NCBI RefSeq assembly: GCF_018383905.1
Contig: NZ_JAGYWA010000007.1
Span: 318,059-382,058 of the forward strand
From: Flavobacterium branchiicola
GTDB taxonomy: Bacteria > Bacteroidota > Bacteroidia > Flavobacteriales > Flavobacteriaceae
Length of the DNA: 64,000 nt
Direction of reading: 5' to 3'
Every line of letters begins with the position of its first letter. The first letter of the stretch is position 1. The translations under genes and the position numbers were made by a program. The notes under the pieces were generated by a model. The model ran no database searches, was not told the DNA's origin, and worked only from the letters and a program-made list of their open reading frames with translations. Below, one piece after another: positions 16,001 through 23,830 of this stretch.

Positions 16001-16525
16001 GCGATTCAGTTGATTATTAATAAAGAATTAGGTCTAGCCAAAAACGAAAACCCAATTCAGGGTTCTTTCATTATCGAAGAATTGACTGATTTGGTTGAAG
16101 CAGCCGTTTTACAAGAATTCGACAGAATCACAGAAAGAGGCGGAGTTCTTGGTGCAATGGAAACGATGTACCAAAGATCTAAAATTCAGGAAGAAAGTTT
16201 GTATTACGAAACCCTAAAACACAACGGAGATTTCCCAATTGTGGGTGTAAATACTTTCCTGAGTTCAAAAGGTTCGCCAACGGTAATTCCGGCTGAGGTT
16301 ATTCGTGCAACTGAAGAAGAAAAACAATATCAAATTACAATGCTCGACAACCTGCATAATTTCCACGAAGCAAAAGTAAATGAGCATTTAAATAAACTAC
16401 AGGAAGCAGCAATTAAAAACGAAAACTTATTCGATTATTTAATGGAAGCGACAAAGGTTTGTTCTTTAGGTCAGATTACTTCGGCGTTGTTTGAAGTTGG
16501 CGGGCAGTATAGAAGGAATATGTAG
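13085..16525 (+). CDS. icmF: Fused isobutyryl-CoA mutase IcmF (B12 domain, G-protein chaperone, mutase)
   Basis: 1146 residues in three parts. Residues 10-140 are the cobalamin-binding domain, with the base-off motif FDGHDAA (Asp23-x-His25) and a GGGGG loop near 99-103. Residues about 195-420 are a MeaB-type GTPase with P-loop GTGGAGKSS (203-211) and NKFDKRG specificity segment. The rest is the acyl-CoA mutase barrel, with [25 protein letters not shown] and [13 protein letters not shown]. It interconverts isobutyryl-CoA and n-butyryl-CoA (some members act on pivalyl- or isovaleryl-CoA) and carries its own reactivating chaperone. No adenosyltransferase or B12 riboswitch was found nearby. Confidence 0.95.
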
Positions 16526-16547: not shown

Positions 16548-16584
16548 AAAAACGCATTTGGTTAATTTAACTAAATGCGTTTTT
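16548..16584 (+). terminator. Intrinsic terminator of icmF
   Basis: Arms aaaacgcatttggttaa (16549-16565) and ttaactaaatgcgtttt (16567-16583), with one G-T pair, followed by T-rich sequence. Confidence 0.8.
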
Positions 16585-16692: not shown

Positions 16693-18576
16693 ATGAAAAT
16701 AAAGAAAGTGAATTTAAATGAAGAAGTCACATCCAAATTAGGTCTACAGCCAATCTTAATGGATCGTTTAGGAGATGTTGTATTGATAGCAGGAAAAAAT
16801 GGTTCAGGAAAAAGTAGAACGTTAAAATTAATTAAGGAAGAAGTTAATAATGTTCCAAATGCACTGCGACAGCGAGTTACTTCGCAAATTATTAAACGAA
16901 GGCAAGATGCAATAATAAGAGAAGAGAAAAACGTAATAAAAGATTTCAGTGCAACAACACAGGATGAAAGAAAAACAATAATTAAAAATTATGAGAGAGA
17001 TATTGAGGACCAAAAAGATATTTTGAAAAAGGCAACTTATTTTTCTCTTTATCCTGAAAAAGAAGATAATGTATTAGTTGATTTTGTGCCTCAAACTTTA
17101 AATCTTGTCGACAGTTTTACTATTACTCCACAACAACGTGATGGTCATGCGAAATTAATTTATAATGTAGGTATGAATCACGTTTCGCTTGGAGCCATTT
17201 CTGCAATAGAAAAGATTCAAAGAAATTTTGTAGAAGCAAGCGTGCCAGACGATTCGAATGTGAGTGAAGAAGAGAGAAAAGAAATATTACTTCAGTATGA
17301 AAAATTAAAAAGCTACATAAAATTATTTCTGAATACAGATTTAAAAAGAACTAAAGAAGGCTATCCTGAAATTTTTGGCAAACGTATTGGTGAAGCAAAC
17401 CTTTCGAATGGTCAAATAATTCTGTTACAATTTTGTATGGCACTTTATGCGCAAGAAGTTAATCTAGAAAATGTGGTCATATTTATGGATGAGCCTGAAA
17501 ATCACTTGCATCCAGCAGCTTTAATTGAAGTTCTTGATAAAATTATTCCTCATATCAAAAATGGACAGTTATGGATTGCAACACACTCAATTAATGTCCT
17601 AGCTCACTTCGATCCTTCATGTATTTGGTATATTGATGAAGGAAAAATTTCTTATTCGGGAGATATTCCTGAAACTGTTTTGAAAGGACTGCTAGGAAAT
17701 GAAGAAGAAATCGAGAAATTGTCTCATTTTTTATCTTTACCTGCTCAGATGGGAAGTAATAAGTTTGCGTATGAAAGTTTGTTTTATCCTGAAGTATTAA
17801 TAACTGGATCAAAAGATCCTCAAGTTGCACAAATTCACGAAATAATAAAAGATCGAGCAACCAAAGGTGAAAAACTTAAAGTTTTAGATTTTGGGATTGG
17901 AAAAGGAAGATTGCTTTCTACTATATATGAGAATGAAAGGTTAAGAAATTCAGAAATCACTGAGTGGTTGGATTTTTATGGATACGATAAATTTGAAGAA
18001 AATAAAAAGATTTGTAGAAAAGTATTTGAAGATATTTATGATAGTTCAGATGATAGATACTTTAATGAAGTGACTAAAATGCTATCCTCACATGATGAAA
18101 AAACATTCGACATAATTGTGATGTGTAATGTATTTCATGAAGTTGACCCTAACGAGTGGCTTAATTTGTTCAATTCTGTAACCTCTCCGTTTAAACTTCT
18201 TAAGGATGATGGGTATTTGTTAATTGTTGAAGATCAGTTTTTGGCCATTGGAGAAAAAGCTCATGCAAAAGGATTTTTAGTTTATGATGAACTTGAGTTC
18301 AAAAAATTATTCAAAATTACTGCTGTTGATAATTATAAATCTAATGATTATAGAGGTGACGGGAGGTTAAAGTCACATCATATTCCTAAAAATTGTATAA
18401 ATCGTATTGATTCTTCTTCAAAAAAAGAATCACTTGAAGTATTGTTACAAAATTCTAAAGATAAAATTAAAGATATTAGAAGAAACGCTTCTCCAACATT
18501 TAAAAATGGAAAGCGCCATGGTTTTTGGTCACAACAGTTAGCAAATGCTTCACTTGCATTAGAGGAATTAAGTTAA
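16693..18576 (+). CDS. ABC/AAA-type ATPase fused to a SAM-dependent methyltransferase
   Basis: 627 residues in two domains. Residues 1-345 form an SMC/ABC-like ATPase: P-loop GKNGSGKS (34-41), a coiled-coil insertion (about 60-115), signature LSNGQ (237-241), Walker B IFMDEPENHLHP (263-274) and H-switch ATHS (296-299). This is the arrangement seen in stand-alone OLD/RecF-like ATPases of defence systems. Residues 390-545 form a class I methyltransferase with SAM motif LDFGIGKG (398-405) and post-I IIVMCNVFHEVDP; the last 80 residues are Lys-rich. A hand-counted 60-nt line is 13 G/C of 60, against 24 of 60 in icmF, suggesting foreign origin. It appears monocistronic; substrate unknown. Confidence 0.8.
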   Translation: MKIKKVNLNEEVTSKLGLQPILMDRLGDVVLIAGKNGSGKSRTLKLIKEEVNNVPNALRQRVTSQIIKRRQDAIIREEKNVIKDFSATTQDERKTIIKNYERDIEDQKDILKKATYFSLYPEKEDNVLVDFVPQTLNLVDSFTITPQQRDGHAKLIYNVGMNHVSLGAISAIEKIQRNFVEASVPDDSNVSEEERKEILLQYEKLKSYIKLFLNTDLKRTKEGYPEIFGKRIGEANLSNGQIILLQFCMALYAQEVNLENVVIFMDEPENHLHPAALIEVLDKIIPHIKNGQLWIATHSINVLAHFDPSCIWYIDEGKISYSGDIPETVLKGLLGNEEEIEKLSHFLSLPAQMGSNKFAYESLFYPEVLITGSKDPQVAQIHEIIKDRATKGEKLKVLDFGIGKGRLLSTIYENERLRNSEITEWLDFYGYDKFEENKKICRKVFEDIYDSSDDRYFNEVTKMLSSHDEKTFDIIVMCNVFHEVDPNEWLNLFNSVTSPFKLLKDDGYLLIVEDQFLAIGEKAHAKGFLVYDELEFKKLFKITAVDNYKSNDYRGDGRLKSHHIPKNCINRIDSSSKKESLEVLLQNSKDKIKDIRRNASPTFKNGKRHGFWSQQLANASLALEELS

Positions 18577-18635
18577 AGATTCTCCTTTTAACGTTAGCGT
18601 CCAACTCATGAACGCAAAGTTTATCCTCTCCAATT

Positions 18636-18739
18636 TGTCATTTCGACCGAAGGGAGAAATCACATTAGTATTTCTACAAAGATTGGCGATTTGCATTGTC
18701 GATTTCCGAGTGCGATTTCTCCCTTCGGTCGAAATGACA
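18636..18739. repeat. Long palindromic repeat (family R5), copy 1
   Basis: Perfect 25-bp inverted arms at 18636-18660 and 18715-18739 (tgtcatttcgaccgaaggga and complement) around a 54-nt centre. A related copy lies at 20321-20448. Confidence 0.85.
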
Positions 18740-18769
18740 AGATTGTGTGTTTGTTGGGTTGGAATATAA

Positions 18770-19084
18770 TTATTCAACAACCTCTCCAACATATCCCAAA
18801 AACTCCATTTCATCCAAAGGAAAAATAGAAAGAACCGTTTCCAGAACCAAACTCACATCTATAGAATCTTTTTTCTTCTCTTGAACATTATGCATATCAT
18901 TGTCGAGTGCCAGAATGCAGAGTTTTATCATATCGGTAATGAGGCAGCCGAGTTCGAAATAGTTTAAGACTTTGATTTGGGCGATTTGTTTTTGTGAATT
19001 GTCTTCGGCAGGTTTTAGCATTGTGAAATACAAAGCAGTTAATTCTTTTAGACGATCTAGGTTTTTAGTTTCGTTAGTTTCCAT
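18770..19084 (-). CDS. Small hypothetical protein next to the ATPase-methyltransferase
   Basis: 104 residues, helical and hydrophilic, with no signal peptide. It contains an amphipathic first helix (LDRLKELTALYFTMLKP), a Cys-containing middle (GCLITDMIKLCIL) and an acidic end. I do not recognise a family. It is transcribed towards the ATPase-methyltransferase gene and separated from it by an R5 palindrome, and it is divergent from the XRE regulator at 19288. The composition reads as coding, but confidence in function is nil. Confidence 0.5.
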   Translation of the reverse strand: METNETKNLDRLKELTALYFTMLKPAEDNSQKQIAQIKVLNYFELGCLITDMIKLCILALDNDMHNVQEKKKDSIDVSLVLETVLSIFPLDEMEFLGYVGEVVE

Positions 19085-19287
19085 AAGGCATATATTTATT
19101 TGGTGTTAGATAATTGTTTTACAATTTGACTTTTACAATATAATTATAAGAAAAATTGTACTTTTGTTTTGTTCGGCGAAGGAAGAAATAGATTGTATCG
19201 TACCGAACCGTTTTGGTTGGTATTGAACCGATCAAATAAGTTTTTTACTTGTTGAGGTTTCTAACACTTAATTATTATCTTTGAATT

Positions 19288-19701
19288 ATGAGCACACTAA
19301 CAAAACCAAATCATATAGGGCGAAAAATAAGCCGTATTCGTGAACTTCGTGATATGAAGCAGGAAGCTTTGGCGCAGGCTTTAGGCATTAGTCAACAAAC
19401 AATTTCGGCTATTGAAAACAGCGAAACTATTGAAGAAGATAGACTTAGTGAAATAGCAAAAGCACTTGGTGTAACAGCAGAAGCAATTAAAAACTTTTCA
19501 GAAGAAGGAATGATTAACTATTTCAATACTTTTAATGAAGTTGTAAATGATAGTCATTTTGGAAATAATAACAATTGCACATTCAATCCATTAGATAAAT
19601 TAATGGAAGCTGTAGAAGAAAATAAAAAGCTTTATGAACGTTTGCTTCAGACGGAAAAAGACAAAAATGAATATTTGGAGAAATTGCTCAATCAGAAATA
19701 G
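19288..19701 (+). CDS. XRE-family transcriptional regulator
   Basis: 137 residues: an N-terminal Cro/C1-type helix-turn-helix (residues about 13-68, ISRIRELRDMKQEALAQAL, then ISQQTISAIE) and a C-terminal coiled-coil tail (about 108-135) suited to dimerisation. Soluble DNA-binding protein. The long upstream gap (19085-19287) shared with the divergent 104-residue protein is where its operator would lie, but no clear inverted repeat was found there. It may regulate that neighbour, itself, or the ATPase-methyltransferase; this is inference from position only. Confidence 0.85.
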   Translation: MSTLTKPNHIGRKISRIRELRDMKQEALAQALGISQQTISAIENSETIEEDRLSEIAKALGVTAEAIKNFSEEGMINYFNTFNEVVNDSHFGNNNNCTFNPLDKLMEAVEENKKLYERLLQTEKDKNEYLEKLLNQK

Positions 19702-21106: not shown

Positions 21107-21408
21107 AAATATTTAGTTTAGAAGAATGGTTTTTATTAGTTGTTTTTGGTAGGGTTAATCTCTTAAATTTTGTTTGTTATTTTTGAGGCGTGTAGTAAGT
21201 TTTGTTTTGCAAATATATCTAAATCAATAACATAGCATGTAATTAAGCAGTGTTTTTTTTGATTTTATCGATAATTTAAGTCAATTATAAAAAATAACTT
21301 ACATTATGTCTTAGATTTTTCTGTAAGCTGAAAAAACGTTTAATAATCGTGCTTTCACCTTTATATGAATTATATACTATAACTTTATATTTATACTATT
21401 TTTTCATC

Positions 21409-21855
21409 ATGACAACACAATATTATCTAAATCGAATAAAAAAATCGCCTCCACAACAGAACATAAAATATTCTGATCTAGTTGATTTGGAAAATATTGC
21501 TTTTGAAATTTCCCAAAATGATACAGAAATCAGTTTTACTCTCAATACATTTTTTCAGGGATCAGAAAATAAAACAACTACAATAAATACTGAAATCGTA
21601 AACTTATTTGCAAAGTATTCGGGTTTAGTTTTTCTGGACGAAAAAGAAACGGGAAACATTTGTTTTGCAAACAGCGATGAGGTGCGGGCAGAATACAGAC
21701 AAAGTTTTACCCTTTTTGATTTTCTGGATTATATATATGCTTTTGTACATTCTTCTCTTTACAGAGAATCTCGGGAAATACTGATTCCATCAGAAACAAT
21801 TCTTTTTTGGCAAATGGTAAAAATAGGTTTTGCTCTAAGAAAAGAAATCAAGTAA
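21409..21855 (+). CDS. Orphan homologue of the C-terminal segment of type ISP restriction-modification enzymes
   Basis: 148 residues from the ATG at 21409 (MTTQYYLN); a 20-residue upstream extension from 21349 is Tyr/Leu-rich and unlikely. Features resembling the end of type ISP/IIG restriction enzymes: TINTEIVNLFAKYSGLVFLDEKE, read as INTEIVNLFA and LVFLDEKE, then DFLDYIYAFVHSSLYRE and a final FWQMVKIGFALRKE. In full enzymes this stretch follows the target-recognition domain. No helicase, methyltransferase or nuclease part is present here. The protein could be a relic or a small domain with its own role. A strong terminator follows. Confidence 0.6.
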   Translation: MTTQYYLNRIKKSPPQQNIKYSDLVDLENIAFEISQNDTEISFTLNTFFQGSENKTTTINTEIVNLFAKYSGLVFLDEKETGNICFANSDEVRAEYRQSFTLFDFLDYIYAFVHSSLYRESREILIPSETILFWQMVKIGFALRKEIK

Positions 21856-21918: not shown

Positions 21919-22296
21919 TTAACGACGGAAAGAAGGACTTTGGTTTACACTTTCGTCAAGCTTTACCGTTTTTACTTTTTTAGCAGCAACTTTAATTTCG
22001 TGTTTCGCAATTTTTTCATTTGCTTTAACCTCCAAAACGTAAGTTCCGGCAGGTAAATCCTCCAGACTTATTGTTTTTGAAATTTCAAGTTTGTTTGCTG
22101 CAGAATCACCCGCATAAAGTAAATTGTGGTTTTGATCGTAGATTGAAAAAGAAGAGTTGTCTACTGTAAAGCTTTCAACTTTTCCGTTTCCGGTTTTTAT
22201 ATTTAAAATATAATCCCCTTTTCCATCAATGGCATAGGTAAATAATGTCGCTAAAAAAAAGGCAGCAACTAACCCGGTCTTGGTAAATCTTGTCAT
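21919..22296 (-). CDS. Small secreted protein, divergent member of a four-gene paralogue array
   Basis: 125 residues with a signal peptide (GLVAAFFLATLFTYA, cleavage before IDG). The mature part is a short beta-sandwich-like domain: FSIYDQNHNLLYAGD, then SLEDLPAGTYVLEVKAN. It keeps the pattern of the three neighbours, but has a Lys/Arg-rich tail ending SFRR instead of their Ser-rich tail. The pattern 'IyD..gnliY... sLe.lp.GtYvLei' resembles a type IX secretion C-terminal sorting domain standing alone. It lacks the shared upstream element of the other three and is the most divergent copy. Confidence 0.65.
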   Translation of the reverse strand: MTRFTKTGLVAAFFLATLFTYAIDGKGDYILNIKTGNGKVESFTVDNSSFSIYDQNHNLLYAGDSAANKLEISKTISLEDLPAGTYVLEVKANEKIAKHEIKVAAKKVKTVKLDESVNQSPSFRR

Positions 22297-22566
22297 GTTT
22301 TTTTTAAATGTTTATTACTAAATGTGGAACGATTCAAAACTACAAATACAAAATTAATTTTATGCAAAAAAATCGCTTTTTTAGAACGTTAAAATGCTGA
22401 ATTAAAACTATTTCTGTATTTTGTTTACGCTATGTACGTAAATACGGGGCTTGCGGTTTTATTTTTTATTGATTTTTTTAATGCGATAAAAATCAGTTCA
22501 ATAGATTTATTAAGAATAGGTTTCTTAAAATATTTTTCGGGTATTTTTTTGTTCAGTTTAAAGCAA

Positions 22567-22602
22567 AAAAAACAGCTCAATAACCACAAAGAGCTGTTTT
22601 AA
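22567..22602 (-). terminator. Terminator of paralogue 2
   Basis: Arms aaaacagctc (22569-22578) and gagctgtttt (22591-22600). The same hairpin core follows paralogues 3 and 4. Confidence 0.8.
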
Positions 22603-22665
22603 AACAATCACGTTTTTACTTTACTAACTATCTAACCTTATACTCTTATGAAAAGTATAACTTTT

Positions 22666-23076
22666 TTAGCGTACTGCTACGCTGGTATTTTTAGCAGAAA
22701 ATCCTGCTTTATAAACTGATGAAACTGCTTTTGATGATAAAACCGAAGTTTCGTCATTTATGTTGATTTCATATCTTACTTTTTTTGCACTGTCTTCAAT
22801 TTCTAAGAAATAAATTCCTTGCGGAAATTCTTCTAAACTAAAAGATCTTAATATTCCGTCTTTACCTGAAGCAGTTTCAGAGTAAATTAAATTTCCCTGT
22901 TTGTCATAGATAGAAAGGTTGGCTTTTTTGGTCTGATTAAGAGCGAACGTAATCAGTTTTCCATTTCCTTTTAATACATGAAGGTTTAACTCATCAATTT
23001 TTCCGTCAATCGCATAACTGCTGATTCCTGTGAAAAGTATTACGCATACTAAACTCAATTTTAAAATCTTTTTCAT
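22666..23076 (-). CDS. Small secreted protein, paralogue 2 of the array
   Basis: 136 residues: signal peptide (MKKILKLSLVCVILFTGISSYA, cleavage before IDG) and a single beta-sandwich-like domain containing KGNGKLITFALNQ, LSIYDKQGNLIYSE, SFSLEEFPQGIYFLEIED and VRYEI. The tail is rich in Ser/Lys/Val and ends SVAVR. Nearly every motif is shared with paralogues 3 and 4. Secretion is inferred; the resemblance to type IX sorting domains is in the 'G.Yflei' edge strand. The gene has its own promoter (23116-23149), upstream element and terminator, so it is a complete duplicated unit. Function unknown. Confidence 0.75.
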   Translation of the reverse strand: MKKILKLSLVCVILFTGISSYAIDGKIDELNLHVLKGNGKLITFALNQTKKANLSIYDKQGNLIYSETASGKDGILRSFSLEEFPQGIYFLEIEDSAKKVRYEININDETSVLSSKAVSSVYKAGFSAKNTSVAVR

Positions 23077-23115
23077 AACTGTTAGTTTTTAAATTATTAG
23101 TTTAATTCTCTGATG

Positions 23116-23149
23116 CTAAATTACTCTGGAATGTGTGTTATTTTAACAA
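23116..23149 (-). promoter_or_regulatory. Conserved promoter of paralogue 2
   Basis: On the minus strand TTG (23147-23149), 23 nt, then TAATTTAG (23116-23123). The same two boxes with the same 23-nt spacing precede paralogues 3 and 4. Confidence 0.6.
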
Positions 23150-23167
23150 CTGTATTTGCCAATTTCT

Positions 23168-23216
23168 ATGCTGTATTCTCATTTACGAAAGCGTTATAGG
23201 TTAAAATTTGAATTAT
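23168..23216. promoter_or_regulatory. Shared upstream element, copy A
   Basis: 49-nt block reading atgctgtattctcatttacg at its left end with the core cgttataggttaaaattt. Copies B (23922), C (24705) and D (24974) are near-identical. This one starts 92 nt upstream of the paralogue 2 ATG. Confidence 0.75.
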
Positions 23217-23360
23217 TTTAAACGTTTTAGTTAATTTGATTATTATTTTTCAACGTTTTTAAAAGGACGAAATTTTACGATTTGCTAACTTTTATCTTCT
23301 TTTTTGTACTTGATTTCTAAGGTTTTGTAAAGTAGGTTTTATCAAAAAGTAAAGCACAAA

Positions 23361-23393
23361 AAAAACAGCTCATTTTTGCCAAGAGCTGTTTCT
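23361..23393 (-). terminator. Terminator of paralogue 3
   Basis: Arms aaacagctc (23363-23371) and gagctgttt (23383-23391). Confidence 0.75.
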
Positions 23394-23425
23394 TAAAATT
23401 GTAAAATTTATTTTTCGGTATACTT

Positions 23426-23830
23426 TTAGCGAACTGCTACGCTGTTGTTTTTTGCAAATTCAGTTTTATAAACAGACGAAATCGCTTTTGATGATAAAGT
23501 GGTTTGTTCATCAGTAATTGTAATTTCGTGTCTCACTTTCTTTACACTATCTTCAGCTTCCAGATAATACGTTCCCGCAGGAAACTCTTCCAGGCTAAAA
23601 GTTCTCAAAATTCCATCTTTACCTGAAGCACTTTCAGAATAAATTAGAGTACCATCTTTGTCGTAAATTGCCAGACTGGCTTTTGTTACCTGGTTAATCG
23701 CAAAAGTAATTAGCTTTCCGTCACTTTTAATTACATGAAGATTAAAATCTCCATTACCACCAATTGCATAAGTACTTAAACCTGATAAAAGCACTGCGCA
23801 TACTAAACTTAGTTTTGAAATCTTTTTCAT
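23426..23830 (-). CDS. Small secreted protein, paralogue 3 of the array
   Basis: 134 residues, the closest relative of paralogue 2. Signal peptide MKKISKLSLVCAVLLSGLSTYA, then IGGNGDFNLHVIKSDGKLI, LAIYDKDGTLIYSESASGKDG, FSLEEFPAGTYYLEAEDS and a Ser/Lys-rich tail ending NNSVAVR. The unit of element, promoter, gene and terminator repeats that of its neighbours with about 750-nt periodicity, which points to tandem duplication. Mature domain of about 110 residues; no catalytic residues evident. Surface or periplasmic structural or binding role is possible but not shown. Confidence 0.75.
   Translation of the reverse strand: MKKISKLSLVCAVLLSGLSTYAIGGNGDFNLHVIKSDGKLITFAINQVTKASLAIYDKDGTLIYSESASGKDGILRTFSLEEFPAGTYYLEAEDSVKKVRHEITITDEQTTLSSKAISSVYKTEFAKNNSVAVR

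What the first reader, a model, noticed from the sequence alone, without database searches (positions are those of the whole stretch)
16693..18576. Single-gene ATPase-methyltransferase fusion, a candidate defence or modification system
Seen: an SMC/ABC-like ATPase (P-loop GKNGSGKS, signature LSNGQ, Walker B DEPENHLHP, coiled-coil insertion) followed in one ORF by a class I SAM methyltransferase (LDFGIGKG), very AT-rich beside icmF (13/60 against 24/60 G/C in one hand-counted line each). Known: OLD/RecF-like ATPases of this layout act as sensors in several defence systems, usually paired with a separate nuclease or other effector. Inference: here the effector slot is a methyltransferase, with an XRE regulator and an orphan protein close by. 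I do not know a described system with this fusion.
Basis: partly seen in the sequence, partly recalled or inferred. Interest (0 to 1): 0.7.

Follow-up and report, generated by a model that had tools for sequence, protein, structure and literature searches.

The report
Sensor ATPase fused to a methyltransferase
A single bacterial gene joins an ATPase resembling the sensor of known anti-phage systems to a methyl-transferring enzyme; it is rare, has moved between distant bacteria and is carried by phages, so it is probably a one-gene phage-defence protein whose methylated target is unknown.

Summary
In detail: window 16693-18576 (+) encodes one 627-aa protein, an ABC/OLD-type ATPase (about residues 1-340, coiled-coil insertion 57-113) joined to a class I SAM methyltransferase (about 372-567) with an extra C-terminal helical hairpin. 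Both halves occur together in 15 fusions found here (Bacteroidota, Pseudomonadota, Campylobacterota, viral contigs); core ATPase and SAM residues are invariant in the 14 aligned. The gene is sporadic (4 of 199 genomes of the genus, own included), crosses phyla, and relatives are cargo in three phage contexts (two tailed-phage-like, one inovirus) and near a Qat defence operon. The ATPase fold is closest to PtuA (Septu, type I-A retrons). The methyltransferase lacks the DNA amino-methylase motif ([DNS]PP[YFW]; NV[LF]HE[IV] stands there); its best fold matches are small-molecule, lipid and RNA enzymes. The adjacent orphan and XRE genes are a dispersed multi-copy pair that sits beside icmF also in relatives lacking the fusion; yet XRE-type regulators of several kinds do recur near fusion loci. 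Best reading: a PtuA-like sensor that switches a fused methyltransferase effector against phages or rival elements. Function and substrate are untested. A new variant of a known kind; the text searches made found no description.

The parts
16693..18576 (+). ATPase-methyltransferase fusion gene (627 aa)
16693..17739 (+). ATPase half, residues 1-349; fold closest to PtuA
16792..16815 (+). Walker A, GKNGSGKS (34-41)
   Evidence: G34 N36 G37 G39 K40 invariant in 14 of 14
16861..17031 (+). coiled-coil insertion, helices 57-83 and 87-113
   Evidence: predicted model
17401..17415 (+). ABC signature, LSNGQ (237-241)
   Evidence: L237 S238 G240 Q241 invariant in 14 of 14
17488..17514 (+). Walker B, DEPENHLHP (266-274)
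   Evidence: D266 E267 P268 E269 H271 L272 H273 invariant in 14 of 14
17578..17589 (+). H-loop, ATHS (296-299)
   Evidence: T297 H298 S299 invariant in 14 of 14
17740..18573 (+). methyltransferase half, residues 350-627; modelled alone at pLDDT 86.4, pTM 0.86
17884..17910 (+). SAM-binding motif I, LDFGIGKGR (398-406)
   Evidence: L398 G401 G403 G405 R406 invariant in 14 of 14
18127..18159 (+). motif IV position, NVFHEVDPNEW (479-489), in place of [DNS]PP[YFW]
   Evidence: N479 V480 H482 E483 W489 invariant in 14 of 14
18229..18234 (+). invariant E513 D514 at the end of the next strand
18412..18570 (+). C-terminal helical hairpin (574-626) with G606 and N618 invariant and Q614 in at least 13 of 14; outside the aligned range of the 50 rows listed
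16505..16524 (+). 20 bp of icmF 3' end shared with the 24-bp direct repeat that flanks the F. salmonis element
16548..16584 (+). 18-nt inverted repeat followed by T: likely icmF terminator, so the fusion gene is probably its own transcript (inference)
18770..19084 (-). orphan protein (104 aa); probably not part of the system
19288..19701 (+). XRE regulator (137 aa), multi-copy in the genus; probably not part of the system

Best explanation
The gene is a one-gene, probably anti-phage (or anti-mobile-element) protein. Its N-terminal half is an ABC-type ATPase of the PtuA/AriA/OLD kind that acts as sensor and switch, probably as an oligomer. Its C-terminal half is a SAM-dependent methyltransferase in the position where PtuB (HNH), AriB or a Toprim nuclease is found in related systems. 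A phage-derived trigger would relieve ATPase control, and the methyltransferase would then methylate a target, probably not DNA bases (a metabolite, RNA or protein), and block phage growth or arrest the cell. Shown here: the fusion, intact motifs in both halves, purifying selection on both in Flavobacterium, joint inheritance of the halves, PtuA-like fold of the ATPase, absence of DNA-methylase motif IV, sporadic cross-phylum distribution, phage carriage. Inferred: defence role, sensor/effector division of labour, oligomer, target class.
For: ATPase half: top PADLOC match PtuA (E 1.1e-16), then PDC-M01A and AriAB; fold match to PtuA of retrons Ec78/Ec83 and Septu (Z 15.5, rmsd 4.7, 263 aligned; Foldseek E 9.5e-7). 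Both halves look functional: ATPase and SAM residues invariant in 14 of 14; dN/dS (NG86) 0.18-0.24 for the ATPase half and 0.12-0.17 for the methyltransferase half among three Flavobacterium copies (ratios values). Halves stay together: pairwise identities correlate at 0.94 over 91 pairs. Sporadic: 4 of 199 genus genomes, 2 of 395 in the phylum sample, the own genome counted in both. Cross-phylum: Rheinheimera groups with the three Flavobacterium copies in the methyltransferase tree (98/94). Site empty elsewhere: icmF-orphan-XRE without the gene in L051, L052, L054, L059. Mobility: phage tail cluster (L020), inovirus-like set with Zot and integrase (L042), region with a tail-type gene and a repressor (L043); integrase 1.8 kb away in G522 and resolvase plus RepB within 5 kb in L013. 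Defence neighbours: QatA, QatB and QatC 6.5-10 kb away in Pedobacter L010; nSTAND3 NTPase 124 bp upstream in L013.
Against: No phage or toxicity assay. At L008, L009, L011, L012, L014, G124 and G130 I identified no known defence or integration gene near by (few neighbours were profile-searched there), and G124, G130 and L012 sit between housekeeping genes. The viral-contig copies come from a collection of viral contigs, so they show that phages carry the gene, not how often. The methyltransferase fold is generic and could serve metabolism; and a DNA adenine methylase (M.BseCI, 7qw7_A, E 2.3e-6) is row 24 of the Foldseek list for that half, so a DNA target is not excluded by fold. The relative placement of the halves is not predicted (pTM 0.53, linker 342-371 under pLDDT 50), so ATPase control of the methyltransferase is assumed. 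The ATPase-half tree leaves the grouping with Rheinheimera open. No trigger or target is known.
Confidence: 0.5

Rival explanations
1. Phage- or element-borne fitness gene that is not immunity: the fusion modifies a host component to favour the element (host take-over, lysogenic conversion or counter-defence).
For: Carried on phage contigs of different kinds.
Against: By eye I recognised no phage structural genes in the flanks of the chromosomal copies listed (not searched with PHROGs), and the three Flavobacterium copies are under purifying selection; the ATPase kin are defence ATPases.
Confidence: 0.15
2. Modification enzyme of a restriction-like system: the ATPase guides the methyltransferase to mark self DNA.
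For: ATPase plus methyltransferase is the parts list of several modification systems. Of 12 methyltransferase halves, 3 match PADLOC mad2 (best 5.9e-6) and 1 matches MTase_II (0.05); M.BseCI is row 24 of the Foldseek list; the XRE neighbour matches PADLOC mad1 at 1e-4, weaker than ten other models; an HNH-type protein lies 7 kb away in L013 (9.4e-12).
Against: [DNS]PP[YFW] is absent; NV[LF]HE[IV] stands there in the copies shown, with N479 V480 H482 E483 invariant in 14 of 14. No DNA-methylase family is among the nine Pfam families. No restriction partner beside the window gene was recognised.
Confidence: 0.08
3. Ordinary metabolic or RNA-modifying methyltransferase whose ATPase half only couples ATP use or oligomerises.
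For: Fold matches include secondary-metabolite, phospholipid, glycine-sarcosine and METTL6 methyltransferases (METTL6 acting on tRNA is recalled); several copies lie between housekeeping genes.
Against: Sporadic and mobile; among 160 neighbour ORFs within 5 kb of 16 loci no enzyme recurs across lineages; the ATPase half is of defence type.
Confidence: 0.18
4. Two-part system with an XRE-type regulator or antitoxin near by (in the window the XRE gene and perhaps the orphan).
For: The pair is adjacent in the window, F. hibernum and F. salmonis. Small XRE-type genes recur: within 5 kb at 7 of 13 chromosomal loci (window, L006, L007, L009, L010, L012, G522) and at L042 and L043, against about 0.5 of 13 expected from 221 HTH_3 matches in 56 Mb of the same genomes (my arithmetic, thresholds not identical). 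In L007, L009, L042 and L043 one lies upstream on the same strand.
Against: The window's own pair is multi-copy and sits at the same place without the gene in four genomes. The other XRE genes differ in kind, distance, side and strand, and such genes are common on mobile elements, so clustering there is expected without a functional link; no control for that was made.
Confidence: 0.07

Closest known systems
Septu and type I-A retron PtuA-PtuB
   Same: ATPase half has the PtuA fold (Z 15.5 over 263 residues) and PtuA is the best PADLOC match; retron-Eco7 PtuAB depletes tRNA-Tyr, Septu PtuAB was reported to target DNA (PMC11555353, passages seen), so targets of this ATPase kind vary.
   Different: No HNH or reverse transcriptase among the window neighbours scanned; the effector position holds a methyltransferase in the same chain.
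PARIS (AriA/AriB), also as single-gene AriAB
   Same: OLD-type ATPase plus effector, at times one chain (PMC10568477, passages seen); AriAB and AriA among the best PADLOC matches.
   Different: AriB holds a Toprim domain (same passages); here the second domain is a SAM methyltransferase.
OLD nucleases and GajA
   Same: ABC ATPase N-terminal half with a fused effector; GajA matches the ATPase half (E 1e-9).
   Different: No Toprim family among the Pfam matches.
MADS (Mad2, Mad3)
   Same: MAD3 is the best NCBIfam match of the ATPase half (E 2.3e-11); mad2 matches 3 of 12 methyltransferase halves; mad1 matches the XRE neighbour weakly (1e-4).
   Different: 43.5 bits against the MAD3 cut-off of 420. 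Mad2 and Mad3 as separate genes of a multi-gene operon is recalled; the MADS paper was not found.
RloC/PrrC (recalled)
   Same: One-chain ATPase switch plus effector that acts on RNA in the cell.
   Different: Their effector is an anticodon nuclease; not compared by a tool here.

Membership tests
Septu / retron I-A (PtuAB) | PtuA-type ATPase | tested here: met
   PADLOC PtuA 1.1e-16; VIA Z 15.5 to 9nnb_D. Far below the NCBIfam PtuA cut-off (30.1 against 500 bits), so a relative and not the retron Ec78 effector itself.
Septu / retron I-A (PtuAB) | adjacent HNH nuclease PtuB | tested here: not met
   Window neighbours are icmF, an orphan without Pfam match and an XRE gene; no nuclease recurs among 160 neighbour ORFs of 16 loci. 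One HNH-type protein lies 7 kb away in L013.
OLD / Gabija GajA | C-terminal Toprim nuclease domain | tested here: not met
   C-terminal half is Methyltransf_23 with a class I methyltransferase fold.
PARIS | AriB effector, separate or fused | tested here: not met
   The best AriAB stretch lies at 250-304, in the ATPase half; no AriB model among the four families that match any of 12 methyltransferase halves at E 0.1.
DNA N6A/N4C methyltransferase | motif IV [DNS]PP[YFW] | tested here: not met
   NV[LF]HE[IV] at the motif IV position; N479 V480 H482 E483 invariant in 14 of 14.
MADS | MAD3 equivalog-level match | tested here: not met
   43.5 bits against 420.
MADS | the other mad genes beside it | tested here: inconclusive
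   Of three window neighbours scanned only the XRE gene matches a mad model (mad1, 1e-4, weaker than ten others); only selected neighbours of relatives were scanned.
Class I SAM methyltransferase | Rossmann-like core with glycine-rich motif I | tested here: met
   Methyltransf_23 in 12 of 12 members; Z 14.6, rmsd 3.2, 184 aligned to PsoF.
Class I SAM methyltransferase | SAM binding and catalysis | not testable with these tools
   Needs purified protein.
Anti-phage defence gene | protects against phage | not testable with these tools
   Needs plating assays.
Anti-phage defence gene | sporadic, mobile, beside defence or phage genes | tested here: inconclusive
   Sporadic and cross-phylum; phage, integrase or defence neighbours at some loci but none identified at L008, L009, L011, L012, L014, G124 and G130; no control against random genes for defence neighbours.

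The most novel reading that the evidence does not exclude
A one-gene abortive-infection system of a new sort: a PtuA-like ATPase senses infection and unleashes a fused methyltransferase that kills or stalls the cell by methylating an essential molecule other than DNA (for example a tRNA, a cofactor or nucleotide, or a translation protein): methylation as the effector chemistry of immunity, not as a self-mark.
Probability: 0.38. Interest if true: 0.82.

Novelty: new variant of a known kind. Interest (0 to 1): 0.62.

Why it matters
To my knowledge (recalled) the known effectors of PtuA/AriA/OLD-type sensors are nucleases, and methyltransferases in phage defence mostly mark self DNA. A methyltransferase fused in the effector position would add a new effector chemistry to bacterial immunity, in a single compact gene that phages themselves carry. 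It is easy to test: one gene, two well-marked active sites.

Tried and rejected
Composition as a sign of foreign origin: rejected, the gene matches the local background. The adjacent orphan and XRE pair as partners: unlikely, but XRE-type genes in general recur near the loci. DNA methylase: unlikely on motif IV. Known family by sequence: no PADLOC match of the window's methyltransferase half at E 0.1; of 12 halves, 3 match mad2 and 1 each Cas11d, Cas12a and MTase_II; the NCBIfam matches (best CpaM 2.3e-6 and MetW) are far below cut-offs; PDB sequence search best E 0.039.

The methyltransferase half outside the fusion: not found at E 1e-6 in 397 genomes of the family (only the own genome matched; at most 6 candidates per genome scored), nor in 72,556 plasmid records or 50,697 phage records (with the Pedobacter half). 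Whole proteins: plasmids none; phages one ATPase-only stretch covering 15% and none. E. coli genomes: nucleotide search only, none, a weak test. Viral-contig scans with L020 and L004 queries gave only L020 itself and nothing. BFVD fold search: no match with TM over 0.31 to the query among the 50 rows. Rfam: nothing in 12-24 kb. Promoter-like sites no more than in shuffles.

Limits: only 3 candidates per genome were scored, and both hit lists are the same two genomes, so these are not independent samples. The C-terminal hairpin is outside the aligned range of the listed rows; that does not show a new fold. L015-L017, L014 (cut by its contig) and the viral loci other than L019, L020, L042 and L043 (the same contigs appear again as L044, L045, L078-L080) match only part of the protein and were not counted as fusions. 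The all-against-all comparison of neighbours used my simple ORF caller at E 1e-4; its six cross-lineage pairs are five between small XRE-type proteins and one between two large proteins of L011 and L040.

Literature: eight text searches aimed at the fusion or its ATPase class (two of them without any hit) listed nothing whose title or shown start of abstract describes it; the library lacks most subscription papers and preprints. The paper I most wanted, on ABC ATPases in conflict systems, is not held. The MADS paper was not found. How public databases annotate these proteins was not visible to me.

The odds of the regulator rival went from 0.04 to 0.07, of the DNA-modification rival from 0.07 to 0.08, of the metabolic rival from 0.20 to 0.18.
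Full report
What is there. The ORF at 16693-18576 (+) is 627 codons long. Residues 31-303 match Pfam AAA_21 and residues 391-513 Methyltransf_23, both above Pfam's curated cut-offs. AlphaFold2 on the window protein with 10 relatives gives mean pLDDT 80.6 but pTM 0.53, with a poorly predicted linker at 342-371, so two domains of uncertain mutual placement. The methyltransferase half alone is well predicted (pLDDT 86.4, pTM 0.86). An inverted repeat followed by T just after icmF and 167 bp between the genes suggest that the gene is transcribed on its own; this is inference. The composition argument fails: the gene has the G+C of its surroundings, and icmF is the richer one.

Family. In genome contigs 98 stretches matched a pattern and 12 encode a relative; eight of these (L006-L013) are full-length fusions, L014 is cut by its contig end, and L015-L017 match only part of the ATPase half (proteins and contexts). 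L007 is the same contig as the G185 hit, by length and coordinates. Further fusions are in G124 and G130, G522, and viral contigs L020, L042 and L043; a fourth viral contig, L019, has the length and match position of the Rheinheimera contig L008 and is taken as the same. With the window that makes 15 distinct proteins with both halves, one of them (G130) broken by an in-frame stop after codon 179. Hosts named by the records are Flavobacterium, Pedobacter, two Flavobacteriales, Rheinheimera, a Burkholderiaceae and Aliarcobacter; the truncated L014 is from Magnetobacteriaceae.

Conservation. Over 14 fusions (G130 and L014 left out) the invariant positions include the P-loop, ABC signature, Walker B and H-loop residues, and in the methyltransferase half D375 P376 Q377, G401 G403 G405 R406, N479 V480 H482 E483, W489, E513 D514, G520 E521, G527, R558, G606 and N618. 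The identities of the two halves correlate at 0.94 over 91 pairs, so the halves have travelled together. Among the three Flavobacterium copies dN (NG86) is 0.151-0.177 in the ATPase half and 0.046-0.117 in the methyltransferase half, with dS 0.39-0.82: both are under purifying selection, the ATPase half less so. A faster sensor and a slower effector would fit; three sequences are too few to prove it.

Relatives of the halves. The ATPase half matches PtuA best in PADLOC, followed by PDC-M01A and AriAB models (25 of 85 matches shown). By fold it lies closest to PtuA of retrons Ec78/Ec83 and Septu (Z 15.5, rmsd 4.7, 263 aligned residues, 16% identity). The methyltransferase half has many fold relatives at nearly equal Z: PsoF (Z 14.6, rmsd 3.2, 184 aligned), TmtA, CurJ, a glycine-sarcosine methyltransferase and METTL6 (13.7); Foldseek alone also lists a DNA adenine methylase, M.BseCI, in row 24. 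Such lists name the superfamily, not the substrate. The [DNS]PP[YFW] motif of DNA amino-methylases is replaced by NV[LF]HE[IV]. From memory, a His at that place is the general base in COMT-type O-methyltransferases; no call tested this. The C-terminal hairpin (574-626), with conserved G606, Q614 and N618, lies outside the aligned range of the 50 rows listed.

Distribution and mobility. 4 of 199 genomes of the genus have a match at E 1e-20 or better, the own genome included; 2 of 395 in the phylum sample and 2 of 395 in the order sample, the same two genomes, own included (only 3 candidates per genome scored). In four other Flavobacterium genomes icmF is followed directly by the orphan and XRE genes, with no fusion between (L051, L052, L054, L059). 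In F. salmonis the icmF 3' end is an integration site: a 24-bp direct repeat occurs at the end of icmF and again just left of the fusion gene, about 10.4 kb apart by the coordinates, and the stretch between carries two integrase-family genes. The fusion lies just outside that element, so the site is a mobile hot spot, but the gene's own arrival with an element is not shown. In the methyltransferase tree the gammaproteobacterium Rheinheimera groups with the Flavobacterium copies (98/94); the ATPase-half tree leaves this open.

Phage and defence context. L020 carries the gene at the end of a phage tail cluster (tape measure, tail assembly and tail proteins), next to a SRAP gene. L042 carries it some 5 kb from a Zot gene and 8 kb from an integrase, an inovirus-like set. 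L043 carries it 7 kb from a tail-type gene, with a phage-type repressor upstream. The gene in Pedobacter L010 lies 6.5-10 kb from QatA (7.3e-132), QatB and QatC. L013 has an nSTAND3 NTPase 124 bp upstream on the same strand, and RepB and a resolvase downstream. G522 has a tyrosine integrase 1.8 kb away. Against this, I identified no such neighbour at L008, L009, L011, L012, L014, G124 and G130, where few neighbours were profile-searched; G124 sits between dnaK and a serine-dehydratase-like gene and G130 next to uvrB (names recalled from the sequences).

Partners. Among 160 ORFs within 5 kb of 16 loci only six pairs are similar across lineages, five of them between small XRE-type proteins. XRE-type genes lie within 5 kb at 7 of 13 chromosomal loci (window, L006, L007, L009, L010, L012, G522), three of which are the same Flavobacterium site, and also at L042 and L043. 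From 221 HTH_3 matches in about 56 Mb of the 13 genomes I would expect about 0.5 of 13; the thresholds are not identical and no control for mobile regions was made. The kinds, sides and strands differ, so I read this as a mark of mobile regions, possibly of local regulation, and not as a fixed partner. The window's own orphan and XRE pair is a dispersed multi-copy module.

How it probably works. OLD/PtuA/AriA ATPases form oligomers that hold and control an effector (recalled; structures of both are in the lists). Here the effector position is taken by a methyltransferase in the same chain. The simplest reading is a one-gene sensor-effector protein, with the methyltransferase let loose on a target, probably not DNA, when a phage is sensed. 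That PtuAB targets differ between systems (tRNA-Tyr for retron-Eco7, DNA for Septu; PMC11555353, passages seen) shows that this ATPase kind is used with different targets. The defence role rests on mobility, sporadic distribution, phage carriage and ATPase kinship, not on any assay.

Novelty. No listed library match spans both halves (of PADLOC 25 of 85 and of NCBIfam 25 of 40 matches were shown), and the text searches listed no paper whose title or shown abstract start describes the fusion. I saw passages of PMC10853773, PMC12839542, PMC10568477 and PMC11555353; none of those shown mentions such a fusion. Preprints, subscription papers and the key review of ABC ATPases could not be read, so an earlier mention is possible. 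I rate it a new variant of a known kind.

Noticed in passing
window 18770-19701; loci L046-L075: A divergent gene pair, orphan (about 104 aa) and XRE regulator (about 137 aa), is dispersed in many copies: XRE matches in 61 of 199 genus genomes, 18 in the own genome and up to 20 in others (20 is also the scoring limit); the orphan is beside it in 22 of the 30 loci fetched. What the pair does is unknown.
   Followed up: partly
G185:C89, between icmF (149455-152892) and the fusion gene (137012-138937): An element of about 10.4 kb with two integrase-family genes sits in the 3' end of icmF, flanked by a 24-bp direct repeat.
   Followed up: partly
L007:9450-9719, L009:1497-1715, L010:12892-13182, L012:15468-15725, L038:5594-6361, L042:8575-8880, L043:8319-8648: Small XRE-type regulators of several kinds recur within 5 kb of fusion loci, more than the genome-wide density of such genes predicts.
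   Followed up: partly
window 18635-18740: A 45-nt inverted repeat of REP type lies between the fusion gene and the orphan gene; similar sequence is between icmF or the fusion and the orphan in L006, L007, L054 and L059.
   Followed up: no
L040:8737-10704 (G130): A Flavobacterium copy of the fusion has an in-frame stop after codon 179, so the gene is also lost or decaying.
   Followed up: partly
window 21349-21855: The 168-aa protein matches Pfam Type_ISP_C (restriction specificity domain) at E 3.8e-4, below the curated cut-off (20.1 against 25.9 bits).
   Followed up: no
window 21919-23830: Three related small secreted-looking proteins in a row on the minus strand; similar rows stand in L006 and L007.
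   Followed up: no
L020:11848-12639: A SRAP-domain gene (Pfam 1.5e-55) directly follows the fusion gene, on the opposite strand, in a viral contig.
   Followed up: no
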